A stretch of DNA of 52,597 nucleotides from Lachnospiraceae bacterium (GTDB lineage: Bacteria; Bacillota; Clostridia; Lachnospirales; Lachnospiraceae). Within the stretch, counting starts at the first letter, position 1. Every line of letters begins with the position of its first letter. Below, in pieces: positions 32,531-43,852 of the stretch. Both the position numbers and the translations under genes were made by a program. Below the pieces are notes generated by a model. The model was not told the origin of the DNA, ran no database searches, and saw only the letters and a program-made list of their open reading frames with translations. The stretch lies in contig JAGAQI010000059.1 in the NCBI GenBank assembly GCA_017622795.1, forward strand, positions 1-52,597, given 5' to 3'.

Positions 32531-33649
32531 ATGTATGATTATTTAGTTGTCGGTGCCGGTTTATTCGGTGCCGTATTCGCCCATGAGGCACATAAGGCAG
32601 GCAAGAAGGTGCTGGTGATTGACAAGCGCCCTCAAATTGCCGGAAATATTTATACGGAGGAAGTGGACGGCATTAATGTGCATAAGTACGGCGCCCACAT
32701 TTTCCATACCTCCAACAAAAAGGTATGGGAGTATGTGCAACAGTTTGCAGAGTTCAACCGCTACACCAATTCTCCGGTGGCACGGTACAAAGATGAGCTT
32801 TATAACCTGCCGTTTAACATGAACACCTTCAGCAAGATGTGGCCGGAAGTAAAGACTCCTGCCCAGGCAAAGGAGAAGATTGAAGCACAGAAAAAAGAGG
32901 CAGGCATCACCGAACCAAAGAATCTGGAAGAGCAGGGCATCAGCTTAGTTGGCCGTGACATTTACGAGAAGCTGGTGAAGGGCTATACGGAGAAGCAGTG
33001 GGGCAGAAGAGCCACCGAACTACCGAGCTTTATTATTAAGCGTCTGCCGGTTCGCTTTGTCTATGATAACAATTATTTTAATGATTTATATCAGGGAATT
33101 CCGGTGGGCGGCTACACAAAGCTGATTTCCAACATGCTGGAAGGCGTGGAAGTGCGCTTAAATACGGATTTCTTTGCAAGTAAAGAGGAACTGCTTGCCC
33201 AGGCAGAAAAAGTGGTTTTCACCGGTATGATTGATGAATATTTTGATTACTGCTTCGGGGAACTGGAATACCGCAGCCTCCGCTTTGAAACAGAGGAGCT
33301 GGACGAAGAAAATTACCAGGGTAATGCAGTAGTTAACTATACCGAATATGAGGTACCGTATACCAGAATTATCGAGCATAAGCACTTTGAGTTTGGCTGC
33401 CAGAACGGCAACTATAATCCAAAGACCGTGATTACCCGTGAATATCCGGCAACCTGGAAGAAGGGTGATGAGCCTTACTACCCAATGAACGACGAAAAGA
33501 ACAACGCTCTGTTTGCCAAGTATAAAGAACTGGCAGAGAAACAGGATAAAGTGATTTTCGGTGGAAGACTTGGAATGTATAAGTACTTTGACATGCACCA
33601 GGTGATTGAAGTGGCACTGGAGTGCGTGGAGAAAGAATTAAATAATTAG
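32531..33649 (+). CDS. glf: UDP-galactopyranose mutase
   Basis: Flavoenzyme converting UDP-galactopyranose to UDP-galactofuranose. The 372 residues begin with an FAD-binding VVGAGLFGAVFAHEA and include the GYTEKQWGR segment and the late RLGMYKYFDMHQVI, all typical of Glf. AGGAG lies before the ATG, 9 bases after mnmA, so it is read with the isc genes although it belongs by function with the glycan locus starting at 35781. It implies galactofuranose in a surface polymer. Confidence 0.95.
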   Translation: MYDYLVVGAGLFGAVFAHEAHKAGKKVLVIDKRPQIAGNIYTEEVDGINVHKYGAHIFHTSNKKVWEYVQQFAEFNRYTNSPVARYKDELYNLPFNMNTFSKMWPEVKTPAQAKEKIEAQKKEAGITEPKNLEEQGISLVGRDIYEKLVKGYTEKQWGRRATELPSFIIKRLPVRFVYDNNYFNDLYQGIPVGGYTKLISNMLEGVEVRLNTDFFASKEELLAQAEKVVFTGMIDEYFDYCFGELEYRSLRFETEELDEENYQGNAVVNYTEYEVPYTRIIEHKHFEFGCQNGNYNPKTVITREYPATWKKGDEPYYPMNDEKNNALFAKYKELAEKQDKVIFGGRLGMYKYFDMHQVIEVALECVEKELNN

Positions 33650-33666
33650 TGTTTAACATAAAAAGA

Positions 33667-33713
33667 GAGTATTTCTGAAACAGTTTAAAGTATAAATTGT
33701 TTCAGAAATACTC
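33667..33713. terminator. Bidirectional terminator between glf and XRE gene
   Basis: A perfect 16-bp stem (arms GAGTATTTCTGAAACA at 33667-33682 and its complement at 33698-33713) with a 15-base loop. A T run follows on the plus strand, and an A-rich stretch before it serves the convergent XRE gene. Confidence 0.9.
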
Positions 33714-33718
33714 CTTTT

Positions 33719-34117
33719 TTATTTTCCTTCCATATCTTGTGAAGTGGCTTCTATAAATAGCTCCAGCATTCGTAAGACATAAGTTATTTGGCGGGACTCG
33801 CATTGATCTAGAAGCCGGTTTATTTCTGTACGTTCCAGAGATAAAACAGGTTCTGGGAATTCTTTTATCTTTATTTCACCACAATCCGGTTCTATACCGT
33901 ACATCATATAATCAAGACTCATCTTAAGATATTCTGCAAAAGCAAGCATGGTTTCCACAGACATACCGCATATTCCTCGTTCAATATCCGAGCAATATTT
34001 CGTTGCACGGTCTATTTTTTCAGCAAGCGCTTCTTGAGAAATACCAAGGCTTTGTCGTTGTTTTTGAATGCGTTCCCCAACGGCATAACGGTCATAAGTT
34101 TCCTTTTTTCGATTCAT
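33719..34117 (-). CDS. XRE-family transcriptional regulator
   Basis: A 132-residue DNA-binding protein with an XRE HTH (about residues 12-68: GERIQKQRQSLGISQEALAE, then YCSDIERGICGMSVETMLA) and a short C-terminal helical part. AAGGAG precedes the ATG. It is divergent from the TnpB-like gene; the shared 205-base region holds a perfect dyad next to a strong promoter, so this protein is the obvious candidate repressor of itself and of the TnpB-like gene. Such regulators are common and no ligand is predictable. Confidence 0.88.
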   Translation of the reverse strand: MNRKKETYDRYAVGERIQKQRQSLGISQEALAEKIDRATKYCSDIERGICGMSVETMLAFAEYLKMSLDYMMYGIEPDCGEIKIKEFPEPVLSLERTEINRLLDQCESRQITYVLRMLELFIEATSQDMEGK

Positions 34118-34203
34118 ACTGATTCTCCTTATTATAATCTGTGTGGTTTATAAGATAAATATTCCACGCTTTACTATAAAAAGTATCTGTGTTAGGAAAA
34201 ACA

Positions 34204-34221
34204 TTTTAAACACGTTTAAAA
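34204..34221. promoter_or_regulatory. Perfect dyad, putative XRE operator
   Basis: TTTTAAACACGTTTAAAA is an 8-2-8 perfect inverted repeat ending one base before the -35 of the TnpB-like gene. The GTTTAAA element recurs in the hairpin downstream. Confidence 0.65.
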
Positions 34222-34222
34222 C

Positions 34223-34251
34223 TTGACACCGTCCTTGAAATGTAATATGAT
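34223..34251 (+). promoter_or_regulatory. Promoter of TnpB-like gene
   Basis: TTGACA (34223-34228), exactly 17 bases, TATGAT (34246-34251): a near-consensus sigma-A promoter. Lone transposon tnpB genes seldom carry such a dedicated strong promoter, which suggests a host-regulated gene. Confidence 0.82.
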
Positions 34252-34254
34252 TAT

Positions 34255-34288
34255 CCTGTTTAGAACACGACTACGAGTTTTAAACAGG
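34255..34288 (+). promoter_or_regulatory. Hairpin/operator at start of TnpB-like transcript
   Basis: Arms CCTGTTTAGAAC and GTTTTAAACAGG form a 12-bp stem with one G-U pair (a mismatch in DNA) around a 10-base loop. It lies at or just after the expected transcript start, so it may act as an RNA leader stem or a second operator. Confidence 0.6.
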
Positions 34289-34322
34289 AATAGATGAGTT
34301 GTAAATAAAGGTTTTGGTATGT

Positions 34323-35576
34323 ATGAGTGACGAAAACAAAAGACAAACAGGTCATTCCATTTTAAGGTATCGGGTACGTTTATATGACAGGCATTTTGCA
34401 TGGTTGAAAGAAACAAGAGAACTGTATACAAAGGTGGTAGGGCATTTCTTCCAGGTGCTTAAGAAGGAATCTGAATTACTGGAACAGTCTGATTTTCTCC
34501 TGCTTCGTGTATTGGAGACAAAATGTATCGGGACGAAGGAGATGAAAGCCAAAGGACAATTGCCGGAATTTCCTTTGACCGGATTTCCGAAAATTCCTTT
34601 GTATTTCCGGCGCTCAGCAATCAACGCTGCCATTGACCTTGTCAGGAAAGATGCAGGTAGTATGGAGCCTAACATGGTGCTTTATAAGGGCATGTACCAA
34701 AACTTTACAGACCACACTATCGATTTAAAGCTTTTTAATGGTGAAAAGTGGGTATGGGTTACCTATCCTTTTACCGGCAGAGAATTTCCAACGGAAGCAA
34801 TCAGATTGTCACCACTGCTGGTGATAGAAAAAAAGAATGCCTGGCTGGAGGTGCCGTTATCCTTTGAAGTGACGGATGTACGCACGGTAAAGGAGAGGAT
34901 GAAGACGGAAGAACGTATTTGTGCAGTATCCTTTCCGGATAATGATGTTTTGGCGGTAGCGGTTATTCTTTCCGAAGACGGAAAAGAAGAACAGCACAGG
35001 TTCTTCCGCGGAGGAAAAGCACGAGAACATCGTCGCAGAATCCTTATGGAACGACTTCGTGTCAGTGAAGAAAGCAGAGGACTGGCAGCCGGAAAAGCGG
35101 AACAGAAGGCAGAGGCACAGTTTCGGAATGAAAAAGAGGATGCGGCAACCTATCGGGCGCTTCGCGACTTAAATCACCATTATGCTCACAGCATCAGCCG
35201 ACAGATACTTAACTTTTGCCTGGAGCAGAACATTAAGGTTATCGTGGTGCCTAATTACGAAACCAGCATCGATTTCCGGGATAAAAAGTACTTAAAAACC
35301 GATGCCTACCGATGGCTGGGGCGGTCCATTATCAGCAATTTAAAGTATAAGGCTTTTGGACAGGGAATTGTGGTAACTTCGGTGCGGCCGTACCACATCA
35401 CCGACTGCTGCAGTGAATGCGGGGCAAAAATCCGCAGATATAACGAAGGCCATTCAGCGGGGCAAAACTATTACGGTGGCAAACTGTTTCTGTGCCCAAA
35501 CGGACATAGCGGTAACGTGGCACGGAACACGGCAATCAATGTAGGAAAGAGTTTTCTGACCTATTATCAAAAATAA
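34323..35576 (+). CDS. TnpB-family protein with inactivated RuvC site (candidate TldR-like RNA-guided repressor)
   Basis: A 417-residue TnpB/OrfB relative. The start is the ATG at 34323 (AAAGG about 11 bases upstream). The N-terminal part has the usual RYRVRLYDRHFAWLKE opening and a FPKIPLYFRRSAINAAIDL motif; the RuvC half keeps the RWLGRSIISNLKYKAFGQGI bridge-like segment and a zinc ribbon (Cys363, Cys366, Cys391, His395). All three catalytic acids are replaced: RuvC-I GID becomes AVS (Ser203), RuvC-II VIVxE becomes VIVVP (Pro310; a Glu lies three residues later), and RuvC-III DxNAA becomes ARNTA (Ala400). No tnpA or element ends were found. Known nuclease-dead TnpBs (TldRs) are RNA-guided repressors; that role here is inferred. 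A passive, decaying relic is unlikely given the intact frame and strong promoter. Confidence 0.87.
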   Translation: MSDENKRQTGHSILRYRVRLYDRHFAWLKETRELYTKVVGHFFQVLKKESELLEQSDFLLLRVLETKCIGTKEMKAKGQLPEFPLTGFPKIPLYFRRSAINAAIDLVRKDAGSMEPNMVLYKGMYQNFTDHTIDLKLFNGEKWVWVTYPFTGREFPTEAIRLSPLLVIEKKNAWLEVPLSFEVTDVRTVKERMKTEERICAVSFPDNDVLAVAVILSEDGKEEQHRFFRGGKAREHRRRILMERLRVSEESRGLAAGKAEQKAEAQFRNEKEDAATYRALRDLNHHYAHSISRQILNFCLEQNIKVIVVPNYETSIDFRDKKYLKTDAYRWLGRSIISNLKYKAFGQGIVVTSVRPYHITDCCSECGAKIRRYNEGHSAGQNYYGGKLFLCPNGHSGNVARNTAINVGKSFLTYYQK

Positions 35577-35760
35577 GGTAGTTAGACAGGGCTTACGGCA
35601 CTGTTAACACATAAACGTGTGGCAACGCACAAAATGAGTTGGTTTCCGCAAGGAAAAAAGCTTATTCGGTACATCACCGCCGGTTTATAGCATTTGCTAT
35701 GGACGAAGAAAAGCCTCAGAGGCTTAGTTGTGATGAGAGTTGTATTTATACAAGTCGAAA
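35577..35760 (+). ncRNA. Putative guide/omega-like RNA downstream of TnpB-like gene
   Basis: The 204 bases between the TnpB-like stop and the next gene contain successive small stems: GTGTG-GCAA-CGCAC (35617-35630), TTTCC-GCAA-GGAAA (35643-35656), ATAGC-ATTT-GCTAT (35687-35700), AAGCCT-CAG-AGGCTT (35711-35725) and TTGTAT-TT-ATACAA (about 35740-35753). Two have GCAA (GNRA) loops. TnpB omega RNAs arise from exactly this place, 3' of the gene, and end in a stem followed by the guide. A guide would begin somewhere after 35725. Boundaries and guide are not determined, and no match to the candidate guide was found in this window. Confidence 0.5.
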
Positions 35761-35780
35761 AAAATGAAAGAAATAATGAG

Positions 35781-36950
35781 ATGAAAAAAGCACTTATTGT
35801 CACTCATGTCAGTGGCTTTGTACCACAATTTGAATTAAATAATGTCCGAATTTTACAGGAGCTGGGATACGAGGTACATTATGCCTCGAACTTCCATAAT
35901 ATCAGTTACGGAACGGACAACCACCGTTTGGAGGGTACGGGTATTGTGTGCCATCAGGTGGACTTTGCACGGTCGCCCTTTGATTTTAAAACAAATTCTA
36001 GAGCATACCGACAGTTAAAGCAAGTAATGAAGGAGCAGCACTTTAAGTTGGTGCACTGTCATACACCGGTGGGAGCCGTTTACGCCAGATTGGCGGCAAG
36101 AAAACATCGAAAGAAGGGAATCCGGGTGATTTATACCGCCCACGGTTTTCATTTTTATAAGGGGGCACCATTGAAATTTTGGCTGGTGTCTTATCCGATG
36201 GAATGGCTGCTGGCACATATGACAGATGTGCTGATTACCATCAATGAAGAAGACCTGCAAAATGCAAAAAAGCTTCCGTTGGCAAAACGTAACGGAGTGG
36301 CCGGGAGAGTATACAAAATTGATAGTGTAGGTATTGATTTAAAGAAGTACCAAAAAGATGAGTTGTATATTTCAAGTCGTATGAAATTGCGACAGGAGTT
36401 TGGCATCCCGGAAAACGCTTTTGTAGTAGTTTCAGTTGGTGAGCTGAACTGGAATAAAAATCATGCGGTTGTAGTGGAGGCTCTTGGAAAGCTAAAGGAG
36501 CTGAAACTTCACTATATTATCTGCGGCGAGGGAATCGAGAAGGTTCCGCTGGCAGAACGGGCAGAGCGTCTGGGAATAGAAGCCAGAGTACATCTTCTCG
36601 GTTTTAGGGAGGATATTCCGGATATCTTAAAGGCGTCAGATGCCATGGTGTTTCCTTCGTTAAGAGAAGGTCTGGGATTGGTGGCAGTGGAAGCGATGGC
36701 TTCCGGCCTGCCGGTCATTGCTTCTGATAACCGGGGCACCAGAGAATACATGCAGGACGGCGTTAACGGTTATGTTGTTTGGAAAAATGATGTAGATGGT
36801 ACGGCAGAGTCAATTAAGAAGTTGTATCACATGTGGACCAAAGATAAAGCAAGCTATCATCAGATGCAGCAAAACTGCCTAAAGACAGCAGAACGCTTTA
36901 GCAGTGAAAATGTCAGTAGAACAATGAGACAAATTTATGAAGAACAATAA
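35781..36950 (+). CDS. Glycosyltransferase family 4 (EpsD/capsular type)
   Basis: A 389-residue GT-B enzyme, first gene of the glycan operon. The start is the ATG at 35781 (MKKALIVTHVSGFVPQFELN); a longer TTG frame from 35694 would run through the putative RNA stems. The N-terminal acceptor domain has HCHTPVGAVYARLAAR and YTAHGFHFYKGAPL, typical of EpsD-like transferases. The donor site has VFPSLREGLGLVAVEAMASG (about residue 290 onward). It probably adds an early sugar to a lipid-linked repeat. The 3' end overlaps the next gene by 14 bases. Confidence 0.9.
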   Translation: MKKALIVTHVSGFVPQFELNNVRILQELGYEVHYASNFHNISYGTDNHRLEGTGIVCHQVDFARSPFDFKTNSRAYRQLKQVMKEQHFKLVHCHTPVGAVYARLAARKHRKKGIRVIYTAHGFHFYKGAPLKFWLVSYPMEWLLAHMTDVLITINEEDLQNAKKLPLAKRNGVAGRVYKIDSVGIDLKKYQKDELYISSRMKLRQEFGIPENAFVVVSVGELNWNKNHAVVVEALGKLKELKLHYIICGEGIEKVPLAERAERLGIEARVHLLGFREDIPDILKASDAMVFPSLREGLGLVAVEAMASGLPVIASDNRGTREYMQDGVNGYVVWKNDVDGTAESIKKLYHMWTKDKASYHQMQQNCLKTAERFSSENVSRTMRQIYEEQ

Positions 36951-37752
36951 CAGTAGCAAAACCAAACTTTCCGTCATTATGGGCATCTATAATCAGAAGG
37001 ACAAAGTTGCACTGGAACAAGCGGTGGACTCGGTGTTAAACCAAACCTTCCGGAAATTTGAATTCCTGATTTATGATGACGGATCTTGCGCAGAAGATGC
37101 GGAATTTCTGAAACAGCTGGCGGCAAAGGATAACAGAATCCTTTTACTGCGTGGTGAAATCAATCTTGGTTTGGCCCACGCCTTAAACGAATGCCTTAAG
37201 GTGGCAAAGGGTGAGTATATTGCCCGCATGGACGGAGATGACATTTCCGCACCGGAGCGGTTTTGGAACCAGTTAGATTTTTTGGAAAAACATGCGGAAT
37301 GTGCCTTTGTGGGTTGTTCAGCAGAGTTGTTTGATCGTGATGGAGTGTGGGGCTACCGTCAAATGGCAGCACAGCCGGGAGAAAAAGAATTTCTGAAGTT
37401 TTCGCCCTATGTGCATCCGTCGGTGATGTTTCGCCGGAGTGTGTTAAAGAATGCCGGGGGCTATTTAGAAACCAAGGATACCCGTCGCTGTGAAGACTAT
37501 GAGTTGTTCATGCGCTTATATTGCATGGAATATCATGGACAGAATCTGGGTGGCAGGCTGTTTTGCTACCGGGAAGACAGGGAATGGTACGATAAACGAA
37601 CCTTTTCCCAAAGAATTGCAGAAATGAAAATACGGTACCGTGGCTTTAAAGCTATGGGAATTTTGAGCATACGAAACTTAATTTATGTGGGTAAACCGGT
37701 GGTGATGGTGGTTCTGCCAAGGTCACTGCGAAGGATACTCCGGAGGAAATGA
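36937..37752 (+). CDS. Glycosyltransferase family 2
   Basis: A 271-residue GT-A enzyme with the opening KLSVIMGIYNQKDKVALEQA, the nucleotide-sugar motif IYDDGS, and ARMDGDDISAPERF, whose DGDD holds the metal-binding acids (about residue 98). RCEDYELFMRLY provides the probable catalytic base region. It is short, cytosolic or membrane-associated, without clear membrane spans. It overlaps both neighbours, so it is translated with them. The sugar donor is not predictable. Confidence 0.9.
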   Translation: MKNNNSSKTKLSVIMGIYNQKDKVALEQAVDSVLNQTFRKFEFLIYDDGSCAEDAEFLKQLAAKDNRILLLRGEINLGLAHALNECLKVAKGEYIARMDGDDISAPERFWNQLDFLEKHAECAFVGCSAELFDRDGVWGYRQMAAQPGEKEFLKFSPYVHPSVMFRRSVLKNAGGYLETKDTRRCEDYELFMRLYCMEYHGQNLGGRLFCYREDREWYDKRTFSQRIAEMKIRYRGFKAMGILSIRNLIYVGKPVVMVVLPRSLRRILRRK

Positions 37753-39038
37753 AGCAAGGAAGAGAAACTGTGACACAAAAGCGTATAGGGCAGAAAATAG
37801 CTGCTCGGGAAATCTATAATAACATATTTGCGCCGGCACTGCTTGGTTTTGTGGAGTGGGTATTACAAGAAGCCAAGCAGCGGGGTATAAAGCGCTTGTA
37901 CTTTTTGGCAAGAGATGGATATCAGATGTATCTGGCTGCGGACTTTCTTTGTAAAAAACGTGACCTTGCCATAGACTGCCGCTATTTATACGGTTCCCGT
38001 TATGCCTGGAGACTGCCACAGTTTGCCCTTATGGGAAAAGATTGTCTCGACATGATTTGCCGCGGCGGCATCGATGTAACCTTTGAAAAGGTGATGAAGC
38101 GCGGCGGACTAACCAACGAAGAAGCCAAAGCTGTGGCAGAGGAGTTGGGCTATGCAAATGACTACAAAAGAATCCTTTCCTACAGCGAGGTGGTGCAGCT
38201 AAAGAAACCACTGGCAGAAAGCAACAGGTTCCTGCCTTTTGTGTACGCACATTCCAAGGGTACCTATGAAACTACCATAGAATATTTGTGCCGGGAAGGC
38301 TTGTTTGATGATGTAAAGTACGCATTAGTGGACAGCGGATGGACGGGCTCTTTGCAACAAACACTGACGCAATTGTTACACTATGCCGGCTATGAAAAAA
38401 AGTTAGAAGGCTTCTACTTTGGCTTGTATGAATTACCGGTCGGTATCAATGAAGAAAGCTACCACACCTATTATTTTGGCCCGAATTACGGACTGAAACG
38501 AAAGGTCTATTTTAGCAACTGCCTTTATGAGGCGGTGTATAGCGCGCCACATGGAATGACGGTGGGATATGAGGCAGGTTGCCCGGTGTTTTTCAACGAG
38601 CACAACTTAAATCAGACACGCATGGAGCAGGAAGCAGAGTGGCTTAAAGAGTATTTGGAAAGCTATTCTTTGAATGGCTTGCAAAATAAGCGAGTTGATG
38701 CAGACCAAACTTATCAGCTTCTGAAACGATTCATGGGGAACCCAACACCAGAAGAAGCAGAAATTTACGGAAGTCTGTTGTTCTCGGATGATGTAACCGA
38801 AGAGCATACCCAACGGGTAGCAGCCGGATTAACAAAAACAGAAATTAAGAGCCAGTATGTATGGAACCGAATCCTCATCATGCTGGGCAAGAAAAAACAG
38901 GTGCTTAAGGACAGCGCCTGGATAGAAGGAAGTGTCGCCCTGACAGAGGGCAGGCACGCATGGCAGATGGTAAATGTGAGATGGTACAAGTACCTGATTT
39001 ACCTGAGAAAGTGGTTAAAGAGAGGAAAAAAACGTTGA
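37749..39038 (+). CDS. HAD-like protein of surface-polysaccharide loci
   Basis: A 429-residue protein starting in an ATGA overlap with the GT2 gene. Early on it has KRLYFLARDGYQMYLAADFL and later YALVDSGWTGSLQQTLTQLL, a pair of phrases seen in uncharacterised HAD-superfamily-like proteins in capsule and O-antigen clusters, sometimes fused to glycosyltransferases. The Asp in LARDG and in VDSGW could be the HAD-type acids, but the canonical DxDGT motif is absent, so activity is uncertain. The N-terminal region (IYNNIFAPALLGFVEWVLQEA) is helical. Its position between glycosyltransferases and the exporter suggests a step on the lipid-linked glycan. Confidence 0.65.
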   Translation: MKQGRETVTQKRIGQKIAAREIYNNIFAPALLGFVEWVLQEAKQRGIKRLYFLARDGYQMYLAADFLCKKRDLAIDCRYLYGSRYAWRLPQFALMGKDCLDMICRGGIDVTFEKVMKRGGLTNEEAKAVAEELGYANDYKRILSYSEVVQLKKPLAESNRFLPFVYAHSKGTYETTIEYLCREGLFDDVKYALVDSGWTGSLQQTLTQLLHYAGYEKKLEGFYFGLYELPVGINEESYHTYYFGPNYGLKRKVYFSNCLYEAVYSAPHGMTVGYEAGCPVFFNEHNLNQTRMEQEAEWLKEYLESYSLNGLQNKRVDADQTYQLLKRFMGNPTPEEAEIYGSLLFSDDVTEEHTQRVAAGLTKTEIKSQYVWNRILIMLGKKKQVLKDSAWIEGSVALTEGRHAWQMVNVRWYKYLIYLRKWLKRGKKR

Positions 39039-39805
39039 AAAAGGAACAGTTAAAACAGTATTGGTTTGTGATAAAGGAACTGACGGGAAGGGAACTGAAA
39101 AGAAAGTATTCCAGATCGTATTTGGGCGTGCTTTGGAGTGTGCTAAATCCATTGCTTTCCATGGCGGTAATGTCGGCGATATTCTCGATGATGTTTCAGC
39201 GGAGTATTGAGAACTTCCCGATTTATTATCTTACGGGAAGCATTATTTGGTCTTTGTTTACCGGAGCTACCAACGCGGCAATGACCTCACTGGTAGATAA
39301 TAAGCAGCTGTTGATTAAGGTGAAATTACCAATGCAGGTATTTACTTTATCAAGAGTTTATACCTCACTTGCGAATTTCGGCTATTCTTTTGTGGCGTAT
39401 GTCGTATTTTTATTTATTTTTAAAATTCCGTTGAACTGGACCATGCTGGTATTAATTCCGATAGTGGCACTGACCTTATTATTCGCAACAGGACTCAGTT
39501 TGTTTTTAGCTTCTGCTTACGTATTTTTTGGAGATATTAAGCATTTATACGGTATTCTTCTGACTCTTTGGATGTATATATCAGCTTTGTTTTACCCAGT
39601 CACTGCCTTGTCTGAAACAATGCAGGCAGTAGTGCGCGAAAACCCAATGTATTGCTACATTGCTGCAGCAAGAGAATGCATGATGTATGGAAAACTGCCG
39701 GACGCTGGACTTTGGATAAGAATGATTGTTTGGGCTGTTGTTATATTTACATTTGGACAACTTTTTTTTCAAAGCAAGAAAAATAATATTATGCAGAAGG
39801 TCTGA
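39035..39805 (+). CDS. ABC-2 polysaccharide exporter permease (Wzm/TagG-like)
   Basis: A 256-residue permease with about six helices and the family opening (KEQLKQYWFVIKELTGRELKRKY, then SYLGVLWSVLNPLLSMAV). The TTG start at 39035 overlaps the previous stop and has AGAGAGG just upstream; an ATG at 38960 would add 25 residues inside the previous gene and cannot be excluded. With the ATPase that follows it forms an O-antigen/teichoic-type exporter, meaning the polymer is completed inside before export. Confidence 0.88.
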   Translation: MKKEQLKQYWFVIKELTGRELKRKYSRSYLGVLWSVLNPLLSMAVMSAIFSMMFQRSIENFPIYYLTGSIIWSLFTGATNAAMTSLVDNKQLLIKVKLPMQVFTLSRVYTSLANFGYSFVAYVVFLFIFKIPLNWTMLVLIPIVALTLLFATGLSLFLASAYVFFGDIKHLYGILLTLWMYISALFYPVTALSETMQAVVRENPMYCYIAAARECMMYGKLPDAGLWIRMIVWAVVIFTFGQLFFQSKKNNIMQKV

Positions 39806-39826
39806 TAGACAGAGAGGTATAGGACA

Positions 39827-40606
39827 ATGAGTACGGGACAAAATATTGAGAATACGGTAGTGCAACAGACAGAACCGGTGATTTCCATAAAAAACGTGAC
39901 AATGAAATTTAAGATTGCTACCGGTAATGTTTCCAGTTTAAAGGAATATATCATCGGCAGAATAAAAAAGCAAATTACCCACCGTGAATTGGTGGCTCTA
40001 AATGACATTACCTTTGATGTCATGAAAGGCGAAGTAGTTGGAATTATTGGTACCAATGGCTCCGGTAAGAGTACGCTGTTAAAGATTGTTTCCGGTGCAT
40101 TAAAGCCTACCAGTGGAACGGTCAAAGTAGATAGAAATAAAGTACAGCTGTTAACTCTTGGAACCGGTTTTGATTATGAATTAACGGCAAAAGAGAATGT
40201 ATATCTGAATGGAGCAATTATTGGTTTTACCAAGGAATATATTGATGAAAAATATGAGGATATTGTAAAGTTTGCGGAATTAGAAGGTTTCATGGAAGAG
40301 AAGATGAAGAATTTTTCTTCCGGTATGGTATCCCGTTTGGGATTTGCCATAGCAACTATGCGAGAAACCCCGGAGATTTTAATTCTGGATGAAGTATTGA
40401 GTGTTGGCGATGAGTTTTTTAGAAAAAAGAGTATGGAGAGAATTCAGCAGATGATTCATGGCGGTTCTACCGTGCTGATTGTGTCTCACTCTATTAGTAC
40501 AATTCAGCAGAATTGCACCAAAGCTGTATGGATTGAAAAGGGAATTCAAAGGATGACAGGCGAACCGAAGGCAGTGTGTGAAGCATACCAGAATATGCGG
40601 AACTAA
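39827..40606 (+). CDS. ABC polysaccharide exporter ATPase (Wzt/TagH-like)
   Basis: A 259-residue ATPase. Walker A is GTNGSGKST (about residue 76), the signature is FSSGMVSRLGFA and Walker B is ILILDEVLSVGD. It ends soon after the nucleotide-binding fold, so it lacks the C-terminal carbohydrate-binding domain of some Wzt proteins. That favours a TagH-like or chain-terminator-independent exporter. It follows the permease by 21 bases and powers export of the glycan built by neighbouring transferases. Confidence 0.93.
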   Translation: MSTGQNIENTVVQQTEPVISIKNVTMKFKIATGNVSSLKEYIIGRIKKQITHRELVALNDITFDVMKGEVVGIIGTNGSGKSTLLKIVSGALKPTSGTVKVDRNKVQLLTLGTGFDYELTAKENVYLNGAIIGFTKEYIDEKYEDIVKFAELEGFMEEKMKNFSSGMVSRLGFAIATMRETPEILILDEVLSVGDEFFRKKSMERIQQMIHGGSTVLIVSHSISTIQQNCTKAVWIEKGIQRMTGEPKAVCEAYQNMRN

Positions 40607-40624: not shown

Positions 40625-43600
40625 ATGAAAAAGAAAATATTGCTGGCTTCTCATGAAATGACATATACCGGAGCACCGCAAAGTTTGCTGCGGATTACGG
40701 ATGTACTGCTGAATAATGGTTACGAAGTGGATGTATGGGCGCTTTGTGATGGACCGTTAAAAAAAGAATATATAAGCAAAGGTGTAAAGGTAACAGTAGT
40801 AGCATTTCCGGAGAAACAAGAACAGTATATTTCCAAAATAAAAGAATATGACCTGGTGATAGCAAATACGCTTTTTTGCGCAAAATTTGCTTGGTTTGCA
40901 CAGCAACACGTGCGCACAGTGCTTTATATCAGAGAAGCTCAAAATATACCATGGCTGATGGAGAAAAATGCTATTGACCCAAACTGGTTGGTGGATGCAA
41001 AAAATATCGTCTGTGTCAGTGAGTATGCCAAGGAGTTTATAGAAGTAACCTATGGACTTCAGAATATTACGGTGATTCACAATTTCATAGATGATTATTC
41101 TGCCCAAGAGGCTGCTAGTTCAGACGATATCATCGATTTCATTGTTTCAGGAACCATTGAGCCGAGAAAAGGGCAGGATGTCGCAATAAAAGCATTTTTA
41201 TGTCTACCGGAGGAACTGAGAAAAAAAGCAAAACTGCATATTGTAGGAAATATGCCAGTCTGGGCGGAGGATTATCATAAAAGGTTACAACTGGGTACAC
41301 ATGAAAGCGTAATCTATCACGGAGAATACAGGGACCGTGAAAAATTATATGAACTGTATCGCAATATGGATGTCTTTATGGTTACATCCACAGACGAGTC
41401 CTGTTCTTTGGTGGCACTGGAAGCAGCGATGCTTGGTAAGCCACTGTTGGTAACGGAAAATACCGGGGCAAAGTATATGGTTCCGGAAGAATGTGTTCTG
41501 CCTACCGGCGATGAGAAAACACTAAGCAGTAGTATGGAGGATTGCATCAGACATCCGGAAAAATGGAGTAAATTTGGAAAAGGAAACAGAGAGCGATATT
41601 TGCTTTATGCCAATAGAAAATCTTATGAAAAGGCACTACTTTCCTATATAGGTGAGGTTATGGAAAAAGAAGAAATAATTTCGGAAAACAAAATAAAGGT
41701 TTCTGTTGTGGTACCGGTCTATAACGTGGAGCAGTATCTGGTGCAGTGCATGGAAAGCCTGGTGAACCAAACGCTACAAGAAATAGAAATTATCTGCGTT
41801 AATGATGGTTCAAAAGACGGCAGTTTGGATATTCTTCGGGAATATGAGCAGAAGGATCACAGAGTGCGGGTCATTAGTGGAGAAAATCATGGTTATGGAC
41901 ATGCCATGAATACCGGTATTGATGCAGCAAAAGGTGAGTTCCTTGGTATTGTGGAACCGGATGATTATGCGGATTTACATATGTTCGAAACCCTGTATCA
42001 AAGAGCAACAGCTACTGGGGTAGATATTGTAAAAGCGGATTTCTATCGTTTCTTTGGTGAAGGTGACGAACAGCGAAATGTTTACAATAGCACGGCGCGT
42101 GTGCCGGAAAATTATAATCATATAATAAATCCAAAGAAGGACAAAGAATGCTTTCGGTTTATTATGAATACCTGGTCCGGAATCTATCGGATGGATTTCT
42201 TAAACCAATATCGCATTCGACATAACGAAACACCGGGAGCATCTTTTCAGGATAATGGCTTTTGGTTTCAGGGCTTTTGCCGAACGGAGAAAATCACGTT
42301 TATAAACAAGCCGTTGTTATATAACCGCAGAGATAACCCAAACTCTTCGGTAAATAACCGGGAAAAAATATACTGCGCCAATGAGGAATATGCATATATA
42401 CGACAGTTCCTTAGAGATAATCCGGAATTGGAAAAAGACTTTTTACCGCAATTTTTGATGAAAAAGTACCATACCTACATGTTTACGCTGAATCGTGTGG
42501 GCTGGCAATATAAGCAGGAATTTTTGCAAAGATTTGCAGAGGAATTTAAACAGGCAGAGGAGCAGGGAGAACTTTGCAAAGCGGCGTTTACTCCTCAGGA
42601 ATGGACGAACCTTCACTGGATTATGAACAATCCGGAAGAGTATTACGAGAAGGTTGTAAAAAAGGAAATCGAAATATCGGTAATCATACCGGTTTACAAC
42701 ACAGAGAAGTACCTTCGGCAGTGTTTGGAAAGTCTGGAAACACAGAGCTTTACACGATTTGAAGTTATTTGTGTTGATGATGGCTCAACAGATGGTTCCA
42801 AGCAGATTATAGAGGGTCTGATGAATCGGGATAAACGTTTTTCGTTAGTTACCCAGCAGAATCAGGGCGCAGGTGCGGCCAGAAATAGAGGGATGGAACT
42901 GGCAAAGGGCGAGTACCTTCTGTTTCTGGATGCGGATGACTATTTTGCTCCGGATATGCTGTTGCATGCGTGGCAGAAAATCAGGGAGACGGAAGCGGAC
43001 ATTTGTGTGATGAATTCCTGGCAGCATGATGAAGAAACGGGAATGATTCAGCCGTGTAATTATGCACTGCGAATCGATGCTTATCCGGGCTGGCGACCGT
43101 TTAGAGTGCAGGATATGGGAAAAAATCCATTCCGCAATTTTATGGGCTGGGCATGGGACAAGCTGTATCTGAAACGGTTTATTATGAACAACAATTTGAA
43201 GTTTCAGGAGCAACGGACCTCTAATGATATGTACTTTACCTACATGTCACTGTTTAAAGCGGATAGGATTACAACACTGGATGAAAGGCTCATTTACCAG
43301 AGGAGAAATATTCCGGGCTCCTTGTCTAAAACCAGAGAAAAGTCTTGGGAGTGCTTTTACAATGCCTTAATGGCTATGAAGCAGGAACTGGTGGATATGG
43401 GGCTTTATGAGCGCAACAGTATATACTTTGTCAATTATGCATTGCACAGCTGTTTGTGGAATTTAAAAACACTACCGGAAGAAACAGCCCAAAAGCTTTG
43501 GGTAAAGATTGAGGACGAATGGGCAGATTCGCTTAGAATTCGACGAATGAAAGAATCCGAGGCAGAATTTTCTGCGGAATATGAGGACTATCAACTGATT

Positions 43601-43852
43601 GTACAAAAGGGTAATAAGGGACTGAAAGCAGTTCGTGAGAAGTACCGGACAGAGCAGGAACAGGCAAAAAAGAATGCCAAGAAGCAAAGCTTTTCTCCGC
43701 CGGAAGCGGTTTCTGCCAATGAAGCGGCGGAGTATCAGGTTTACGTGAATAAAATCAGAAATTCCAAGCTGTTTCAGGTGGCATTAAAAGTGTTTAAGTG
43801 GCTGATTAAGGTACGAAGAAAAATAAAAGGAATGTGGAGAAACGGAAAATGA
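40625..43852 (+). CDS. Trimodular glycosyltransferase (GT4-GT2-GT2)
   Basis: A 1075-residue protein with three catalytic modules. Residues 1 to about 345 form a GT4-type GT-B domain ([16 protein letters not shown], then [16 protein letters not shown] and [20 protein letters not shown]). Around 356-650 is a first GT2 ([37 protein letters not shown]). Around 681-960 is a second GT2 ([35 protein letters not shown]). A basic C-terminal tail may bind the membrane. Such proteins can add successive sugars in one pass. It overlaps ugd by four bases. Confidence 0.9.

What the first reader, a model, noticed from the sequence alone, without database searches (positions are those of the whole stretch)
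34323..35576. Intact TnpB-family gene with all three RuvC catalytic residues replaced
Seen: the fold landmarks and zinc ribbon of TnpB are kept, but the aligned catalytic positions are Ser203, Pro310 and Ala400, and the gene has a consensus promoter and an open 417-residue frame. Known: nuclease-dead TnpBs (TldRs) have been exapted as RNA-guided transcriptional repressors, described mainly beside flagellin and oppF-type genes. Inference: this is a TldR-like regulator in a new context, between an XRE gene and a surface-glycan operon.
Basis: partly seen in the sequence, partly recalled or inferred. Interest (0 to 1): 0.92.

Follow-up and report, generated by a model that had tools for sequence, protein, structure and literature searches.

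The report
Dead TnpB heading surface-sugar operons
A gene that once encoded an RNA-guided DNA cutter has lost its cutting residues and, with a conserved knotted RNA beside it, sits at the head of surface-sugar operons, many of them behind flippable promoters, so it is probably a new regulator of which coat a gut bacterium wears.

Summary
The 417-residue ORF at 34323-35576 is TnpB/Cas12f-like, and profile alignment puts Ser203, Pro310 and Ala400 at the three catalytic positions. It belongs to a nuclease-dead clade: 23 near-full-length members, the window's included, all with Pro at the Glu position. Copies in one single-contig genome show purifying selection (dN/dS 0.16-0.20).

(1) A structured RNA lies directly 3' of the gene (window 35665-35743), with a covarying pseudoknot in 27 loci (97.9% of 240 pair cells); significant model hits lie only beside dead tnpB. 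(2) The next gene is a sugar or glycan gene in 17 of 23 loci. (3) In many relatives the promoter region lies between inverted recombination sites; in G793 one of four such segments is reversed. The window has an XRE gene and GTTTWRAAC repeats instead.

Most likely it is a TldR-like ribonucleoprotein controlling glycan operons that are often phase-variable. RNA-guided targeting is not shown: no guide match beat chance. No structure model could be run.

The parts
34323..35576 (+). nuclease-dead TnpB-like protein (S203, P310, A400 at the catalytic D/E/D positions)
35665..35743 (+). structured RNA (omega-RNA-like scaffold): hairpin H1 35667-35669/35680-35682; pseudoknot 35672-35677 (CATCAC) with 35730-35735 (GTGATG); inner hairpin 35711-35725; ends in AGTTGT 35738-35743
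   Evidence: covariation in 27 loci; own-genome covariance-model hit E 2.6e-12, (W was one of the rows the model was built from); letters checked
35744..35759 (+). candidate guide (non-conserved sequence just after the scaffold); targets not found
   Evidence: conservation stops after AGTTRT; no target excess
34223..34251 (+). promoter-like TTGACA-17-TATGAT
34214..34285 (.). three GTTTWRAAC operator-like repeats (34214-34222, 34258-34266, 34277-34285), the last two within an imperfect inverted repeat 34254-34289
   Evidence: same repeats upstream of L057
34291..34303 (+). TAGATG|AGTTGTA, a recurrent motif before the dead gene's start that repeats the RNA's 3' end; candidate TAM plus seed target, unproven
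   Evidence: strict form not found at the G793 dead genes
33719..34117 (-). divergent XRE-family (HTH_3) regulator; control of this promoter is inferred
35781..36950 (+). first glycan gene: GT1-type glycosyltransferase
36937..37752 (+). GT2-type glycosyltransferase
37749..39038 (+). operon gene without Pfam match
38960..40606 (+). ABC transporter pair (ABC2_membrane 38960-39805, ABC_tran 39827-40606), Wzm/Wzt type (name recalled)
40625..43852 (+). 1075-aa protein with glycosyltransferase-like stretches (read by eye, no family search)
32531..33649 (+). UDP-galactopyranose mutase (GLF), lying between mnmA and the XRE gene; absent at this place in the same-genus locus L060

Best explanation
This is a domesticated, nuclease-dead TnpB that forms a ribonucleoprotein with the RNA encoded right behind it and regulates surface-polysaccharide operons. 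Shown by sequence: the cutting residues are gone in the whole clade while the protein is conserved; the pseudoknot RNA is conserved and its significant hits lie beside it; the pair usually heads a glycan operon; in many relatives the promoter region of the unit lies in an invertible-looking segment, and one single-contig genome has four units with one segment opposite to three. Inferred: the operon that is switched on makes dead TnpB plus RNA together with its glycan enzymes; the RNP binds DNA through a short seed after the scaffold, as TldRs do, and represses competing glycan loci or its own leader so that one coat is made at a time. In the window itself the switch is not an inverton but probably an XRE regulator on a fixed promoter. 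Confidence: regulatory RNP of glycan operons about 0.8; RNA-guided DNA-binding repressor about 0.5; cross-repression between loci about 0.35.
For: All three catalytic residues lost in the 23 near-full-length members, Pro at the Glu position in 19 of 19 and in the 4 G793 copies by eye; none has Asp or Glu at the other two. Dead and intact forms separate at 100/99 support. dN/dS 0.16-0.20 between G793 copies. RNA: 97.9% of 240 cells paired against 77.5% in shuffles, covariation 0.646 against 0.221 (0 of 500), all six pseudoknot pairs with two-sided changes. RNA model hits 9 of 397 family genomes, exactly the 9 with a dead tnpB among the 12 protein hits. First co-directional downstream gene is a sugar/glycan family in 17 of 23 loci; no terminator-like site (perfect stem, my own scan) before it in 20 of 20. 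Inverted-pair scan: 11 of 21 upstream windows score 17 or more, against 2 of 314 other windows. G793: segment of L098 opposite to L095-L097; best promoter toward the dead gene in L098, away in L097. A published parallel: csrA-TldR loci, four in one Oscillibacter genome, with hin invertases upstream of most and predicted cross-targeting (PMC13418256, section 11); a 6-nt seed suffices for a TldR there (passage).
Against: No guide-target pair stood out from shuffles: 23 loci tested, best 4 of 60 (L055), then 5 of 60 (W). The own-genome guide search gave one other hit, with 2 mismatches (reversed control none; I estimate 1.7 expected by chance). The G793 search gave 80 hits, 3 of them RNA ends themselves, against 73 for the reversed control. 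The strict TTAGAY-AGTTRT leader motif did not recur at the G793 dead genes. Of 23 RNA loci, 4 have no co-directional gene of this kind (L061, L040, L047, L051). The own genome holds a single copy (86.6% complete), so cross-repression between paralogues cannot act in it unless copies are missing. In L040 the dead gene lies inside the inverted-site pair and is not clearly driven by the switching promoter. The promoter counts are not above shuffles. The covariance model missed 2 of the 23 RNAs (L058, L061) and scored G793 weakly. No RNA-binding, DNA-binding or expression data exist, and no structure model was obtained.
Confidence: 0.5

Rival explanations
1. Cis-acting RNA regulator: the dead TnpB binds its pseudoknot RNA in the nascent operon transcript and acts there, as an antiterminator, RNA-processing factor or translation regulator of the first glycan gene, without any DNA guide.
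For: The RNA lies just 3' of the dead gene and, in 17 of 23 loci, before a sugar/glycan gene; in 9 of the 20 loci with a gene in range the gap from RNA end to that gene's start is 14-47 nt, so scaffold end and ribosome-binding site nearly touch. No guide target found. No orphan RNA among significant hits. No terminator between dead gene and operon.
Against: An RNA directly 3' of tnpB is the ancestral omega-RNA arrangement (recalled), so position alone is not evidence. L061, L051, L047 and L040 keep the RNA without a co-directional glycan operon. No terminator was found in the leaders for an antiterminator to bypass.
Confidence: 0.22
2. Switch controller: the RNP acts on the recombination sites or promoters of the invertons, biasing or locking DNA inversion rather than transcription.
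For: Inverted sites with locus-specific cores lie next to the dead gene in many relatives; in L040 the dead gene is inside the site pair; a Phage_integrase gene sits inside the G003 pair.
Against: W, L057 and L038 show no inverton at the threshold used but keep dead TnpB and RNA; no guide match to the promoter regions tested; 9 of 13 genomes lack a close copy of that recombinase.
Confidence: 0.12
3. Hitchhiking relic: a decaying TnpB with no function that happens to sit in variable glycan loci.
For: Some copies are broken (G125:C28, locus L050, has an in-frame stop; L048 is a fragment).
Against: dN/dS 0.16-0.20, an open frame kept at 32-73% identity to the window protein, an RNA with compensatory changes, a similar genomic slot in 10 of 12 genomes.
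Confidence: 0.06
4. Still a nuclease using non-canonical residues (for example Glu313).
For: Family profile match and zinc cysteines are kept.
Against: Glu313 aligns to a non-catalytic position and is not conserved; none of the three positions has Asp or Glu in any near-full-length member.
Confidence: 0.02

Closest known systems
TldR (TnpB-like nuclease-dead repressors; fliC- and csrA-associated in the paper read, oppF-associated recalled)
   Same: TnpB descendant with a dead RuvC, RNA scaffold directly 3', beside non-transposon genes for a variable surface structure; the csrA-TldR loci of gut bacteria are also multi-copy and lie beside invertible promoters (PMC13418256, section 11 read)
   Different: glycan operons instead of flagellin; palindromic sites of tyrosine-recombinase type (inferred) instead of hin; heads the operon it would regulate; no guide target identified; relation to the TldR clades not tested
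TnpB / IS200-IS605 RNA-guided nucleases
   Same: profile match, zinc cysteines, structured RNA after the ORF
   Different: no catalytic residue left in the clade; no tnpA recognised by eye beside W
dCas12f with sigma factor (nuclease-deactivated Cas12f, PDB 9n9c; function recalled)
   Same: dead RuvC of the same superfamily; weak sequence match
   Different: no sigma factor gene recognised by eye beside W; RNA adjacent to the gene, no CRISPR-like array in 33000-37000
Bacteroides capsule switching (invertible promoters, UpxY/UpxZ; recalled)
   Same: several glycan loci, invertible promoters, a regulator gene at the head of each operon
   Different: regulator is a dead TnpB plus RNA, in Clostridia

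Membership tests
TldR | TnpB-derived protein with inactivated RuvC | tested here: met
TldR | guide RNA scaffold encoded next to the gene | tested here: met
   conserved pseudoknot RNA in 27 loci; binding by the protein not tested
TldR | guide complementary to a genomic target beside a TAM | tested here: inconclusive
   no hit above chance; candidate leader motif only
TldR | represses transcription of the target | not testable with these tools
   needs an experiment
TldR | stable association with non-transposon genes | tested here: met
   17 of 23 loci followed by a sugar/glycan gene
TldR | groups with known TldR clades in a tree | not tested
TnpB nuclease | Asp/Glu/Asp RuvC triad | tested here: not met
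   S203/P310/A400
Cas12f (type V-F CRISPR) | CRISPR array beside the gene | tested here: not met
   only two-copy repeats in window 33000-37000; farther away not tested
Cas12f (type V-F CRISPR) | score above the curated Cas12f2 model cut-off | tested here: not met
   51.5 bits against a cut-off of 450

The most novel reading that the evidence does not exclude
A dead TnpB that has become the built-in regulator of phase-variable surface-polysaccharide operons in Clostridia, acting on its own nascent leader RNA instead of, or as well as, on DNA: a TnpB descendant working as an RNA-bound operon-head regulator that lets only the switched-on coat locus be expressed.
Probability: 0.2. Interest if true: 0.95.

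Novelty: new variant of a known kind. Interest (0 to 1): 0.82.

Why it matters
If right, TnpB exaptation into RNA-based regulators extends from flagellin to surface polysaccharides, a major interface of gut bacteria with host and phage, and is coupled in many relatives to DNA inversion. It would be a natural CRISPRi-like layer on capsule choice, and a new RNA family that covariation already defines and that can be tested directly by pull-down and ChIP-seq.

Tried and rejected
Guide targets: sequence after the scaffold end against loci of the same genome and, with 60 shuffles per locus, against dead-gene promoters and leaders, 23 loci, none convincing; own-genome pattern search; G793 pattern search equal to its reversed control. 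Not rejected as a mechanism, only not shown.

The TTAGAY|AGTTRT motif as target: 15 hits in 385 kb, 9 of them at dead genes, but it was shaped on 5 of those 9, and in G793 the strict form had one hit, not at a dead gene; a laxer form had one hit 18 nt after the L096 stop. Kept as a lead only.

Known RNA family: no Rfam match in the window at gathering threshold; relaxed searches gave only chance-level names in the window and a pan motif in L100. Viral contigs: 48 stretches matched a pattern, none a relative. Phage and plasmid records: 2 and 11 records, all distant TnpB-like matches at 21-28% identity. G512: at E <= 1 one weak RNA hit (E 0.15) on another contig than its broken protein fragment; not followed.

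Rows dropped and choices made: L064, L060 and L048 were left out of the RNA set before counting; L064 and L060 end at a contig edge, L048 is a fragment where I saw no RNA. L059 and L060 are contig ends that share sequence and look like one locus. The RNA rows were cut with a pattern that fixes the GG and CC of the first hairpin and with ends placed at AGTTRT by eye, so those invariant columns are by construction; the pseudoknot bases were left free or nearly free in the pattern, though I had first seen them by eye in these loci. The inverton score threshold of 17 was set. In one search the L054 score comes from an internal repeat rather than a site pair, so clear site pairs are 10 of 21; L040's pair spans the gene. 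The second L096 site and the L043 partner were seen by eye only. The L056 glycosyltransferase was named by hand; the script's first gene there was a later one.

Papers: PMC13418256 outline, sections 3, 11 and 12 and passages seen; the rest not read. Wiegand 2024 and the 2023 TnpB/Cas12 survey were not held and are recalled. 'No report found' rests on searches (listings only) and listings 20, 35 and 42, in an open-licence library.

Full report
OBSERVATION. The ORF 34323-35576 is real and open. It matches TnpB-family models below their curated cut-offs and the Cas12f1-like TNB domain above it. Three kinds of alignment agree that the triad is gone: a family alignment with intact TnpB outgroups, a profile search of solved structures for the second and third positions, and a profile-profile alignment for all three. 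The residues are S203, P310 and A400. The own genome holds one copy.

A DEAD CLADE. A search of 61 genomes (own and relatives) found 5 with a match; one of them, G012, is a weak hit to an intact-looking TnpB (by eye). A search of 397 Lachnospiraceae genomes found 12 at E <= 1e-15: 9 carry dead copies and 3 (G104, G119, G202) have intact D/E/D. A search of 391 genomes of the class added G793, a single-contig genome of another family with 4 dead copies; G485 is intact by eye, and G512 is broken and was not classed. With G001 and G003, dead copies occur in 12 genomes. The Glu position is Pro in 19 of 19 aligned members and in the 4 G793 copies; the first Asp position is S, A, Y, I, Q, R or V and the third A, Y, G, S or F. 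Of 27 proteins, 23 dead (window included) and 4 intact split at 100/99; the intact ones are distant, so closer active relatives may exist. dN/dS between G793 copies is 0.16-0.20; for L043/L044 it is 0.125 at dS 2.1; the window's own pairs are saturated.

THE RNA. Between the dead gene and the next gene lies a conserved element. A short hairpin holds six loop bases that pair with six bases two nucleotides before a terminal AGTTRT-like sequence. In 23 loci 98.0% of 204 cells pair. With four G793 RNAs found afterwards, 97.9% of 240 pair, with a covariation score of 0.646 against 0.221 in shuffles; sliding the partner by 1-3 columns gives 27-56%. Two of the three hairpin pairs are invariant partly because the rows were cut on those letters. 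A covariance model finds one copy in the own genome. In 11 related genomes it gives 20 hits in 9 genomes, all beside dead genes, and misses the RNAs of L058 and L061. It hits 9 of 397 family genomes, exactly those with dead copies. Only part of the candidates per genome was scored (150, or 10). In G793 the model finds 1 of the 4 RNAs, weakly (E 0.12), and G512 has one weak hit (E 0.15). No Rfam family matches. Homology between copies stops at or just after AGTTRT in the W/L057/L059 and L051/L052 comparisons, as expected of a scaffold/guide border.

THE OPERON. The first co-directional gene after the RNA belongs to a sugar or glycan family in 17 of 23 loci. L057 and L045 have no Pfam hit there, but glycan genes follow by eye. 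L061, L040 and L047 have no co-directional gene in range, and L051's has no Pfam match; in L061 and L040 a glycan operon lies next door on the other strand. All four G793 units precede polysaccharide genes by eye. No terminator-like site separates dead gene and next gene in 20 of 20 loci checked. The window operon starts with GT1 and GT2 glycosyltransferases and an ABC transporter pair.

THE SWITCH. Inverted pairs of palindromic sites flank the upstream region in many relatives. Eleven of 21 windows score 17 or more, against 2 of 314 other windows, 2 of 31 other intergenic windows and 0 of 210 shuffles; one of the 11, L054, is an internal repeat, and the threshold was set. In G019, G269 and G793 the arms are shared between loci while the cores are locus-specific and match as reverse complements. 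In G003 the segment contains a Phage_integrase gene. In L040 the segment contains the dead gene and its RNA, and the operon is divergent. In G793 the segment of L098 is reversed relative to L095, L096 and L097, and the best promoter points to the dead gene in L098 and away in L097, although promoter counts there are no higher than in shuffles. Over 14 segments the best promoter points away in 11, toward in 2 (L098; L039 weakly) and ties in 1 (L095); against 100 shuffles each, 9 of the 11 are at 5 or fewer, L098 at 7, and L039, L095, L053 and L064 are not distinct. Consensus promoters are weak evidence; the relative orientation in G793 is the firm part. That the segments invert is inferred, not observed.

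THE WINDOW ITSELF. W shows no inverton, and its genome has only a distant (27%) relative of the recombinase. It has a divergent XRE gene and three GTTTWRAAC repeats around the promoter (8 matches in the whole window, 5 of 100 shuffles as many), as does L057 (9 matches, 0 of 200 shuffles). The matching locus of the same-genus genome G003 has the recombinase segment in place of glf and XRE. So the window looks like an XRE-controlled version of a unit that is phase-variable elsewhere.

MECHANISM. Supported by sequence: dead clade, structured RNA, operon-head position, invertible-looking promoters in relatives. Inferred: RNP formation, DNA targeting, repression. TldR guides as short as 6 nt suffice (PMC13418256, passage), too short for a sequence search to find or exclude. 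The csrA-TldR loci described there lie next to invertases and, in one Oscillibacter strain, four loci are predicted to cross-target (section 11), which is the same logic on another surface structure. Guide searches here were negative. I therefore hold RNA-guided repression at about 0.5 and keep a cis-RNA mechanism as the main rival.

NOVELTY. A search of an open-licence library for TnpB with invertible and polysaccharide gave no paper; related searches listed nothing that joins them by title or abstract start. Works like a TldR: likely. Is a TldR: three defining features met, one inconclusive, one untested and one untestable here. I call it a new variant of a known kind.

Noticed in passing
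L045 about 3.86-5.39 kb (upstream of its dead gene): A TnpA-like (134 aa) and a TnpB-like (369 aa) gene pair lies just upstream of the dead tnpB, apparently a separate IS200/IS605 element (read by eye).
   Followed up: no
L053, L054 and L064 upstream regions (G019): A long imperfect inverted repeat beginning CAAAGAAGTATTCC lies between or beside the inverted sites and recurs elsewhere in the same loci; MITE-like or a structured leader.
   Followed up: no
L050 (G125:C28): The dead gene has an in-frame stop but its RNA keeps the pseudoknot, so the RNA might serve another copy's protein.
   Followed up: no
L050, L051 and L052 (G125): L050 and L051 are alike from the first inverted site on, and L051 and L052 up to the RNA end and not beyond, like a cassette with sharp borders.
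   Followed up: partly
L041 and L039 (G269): One contig ends exactly at an inverted site and another begins about 25 bases from one, as expected if the sites invert in the sampled population.
   Followed up: no
window 36353-36370: A second copy of the leader motif (AAAAGATGAGTTGTATAT) lies inside the first glycosyltransferase gene.
   Followed up: no
L043 and L044, between RNA and first glycan gene: Unusually long leaders (826 and 535 nt) with conserved stretches before the epimerase gene; no Rfam match there.
   Followed up: partly
window 37749-39038: A 429-aa operon gene without a Pfam match, with a similar gene at the same place in L059.
   Followed up: no
G512:C38:103-197: A weak RNA-model hit (E 0.15) in a genome that also has a broken homologue on another contig.
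   Followed up: no
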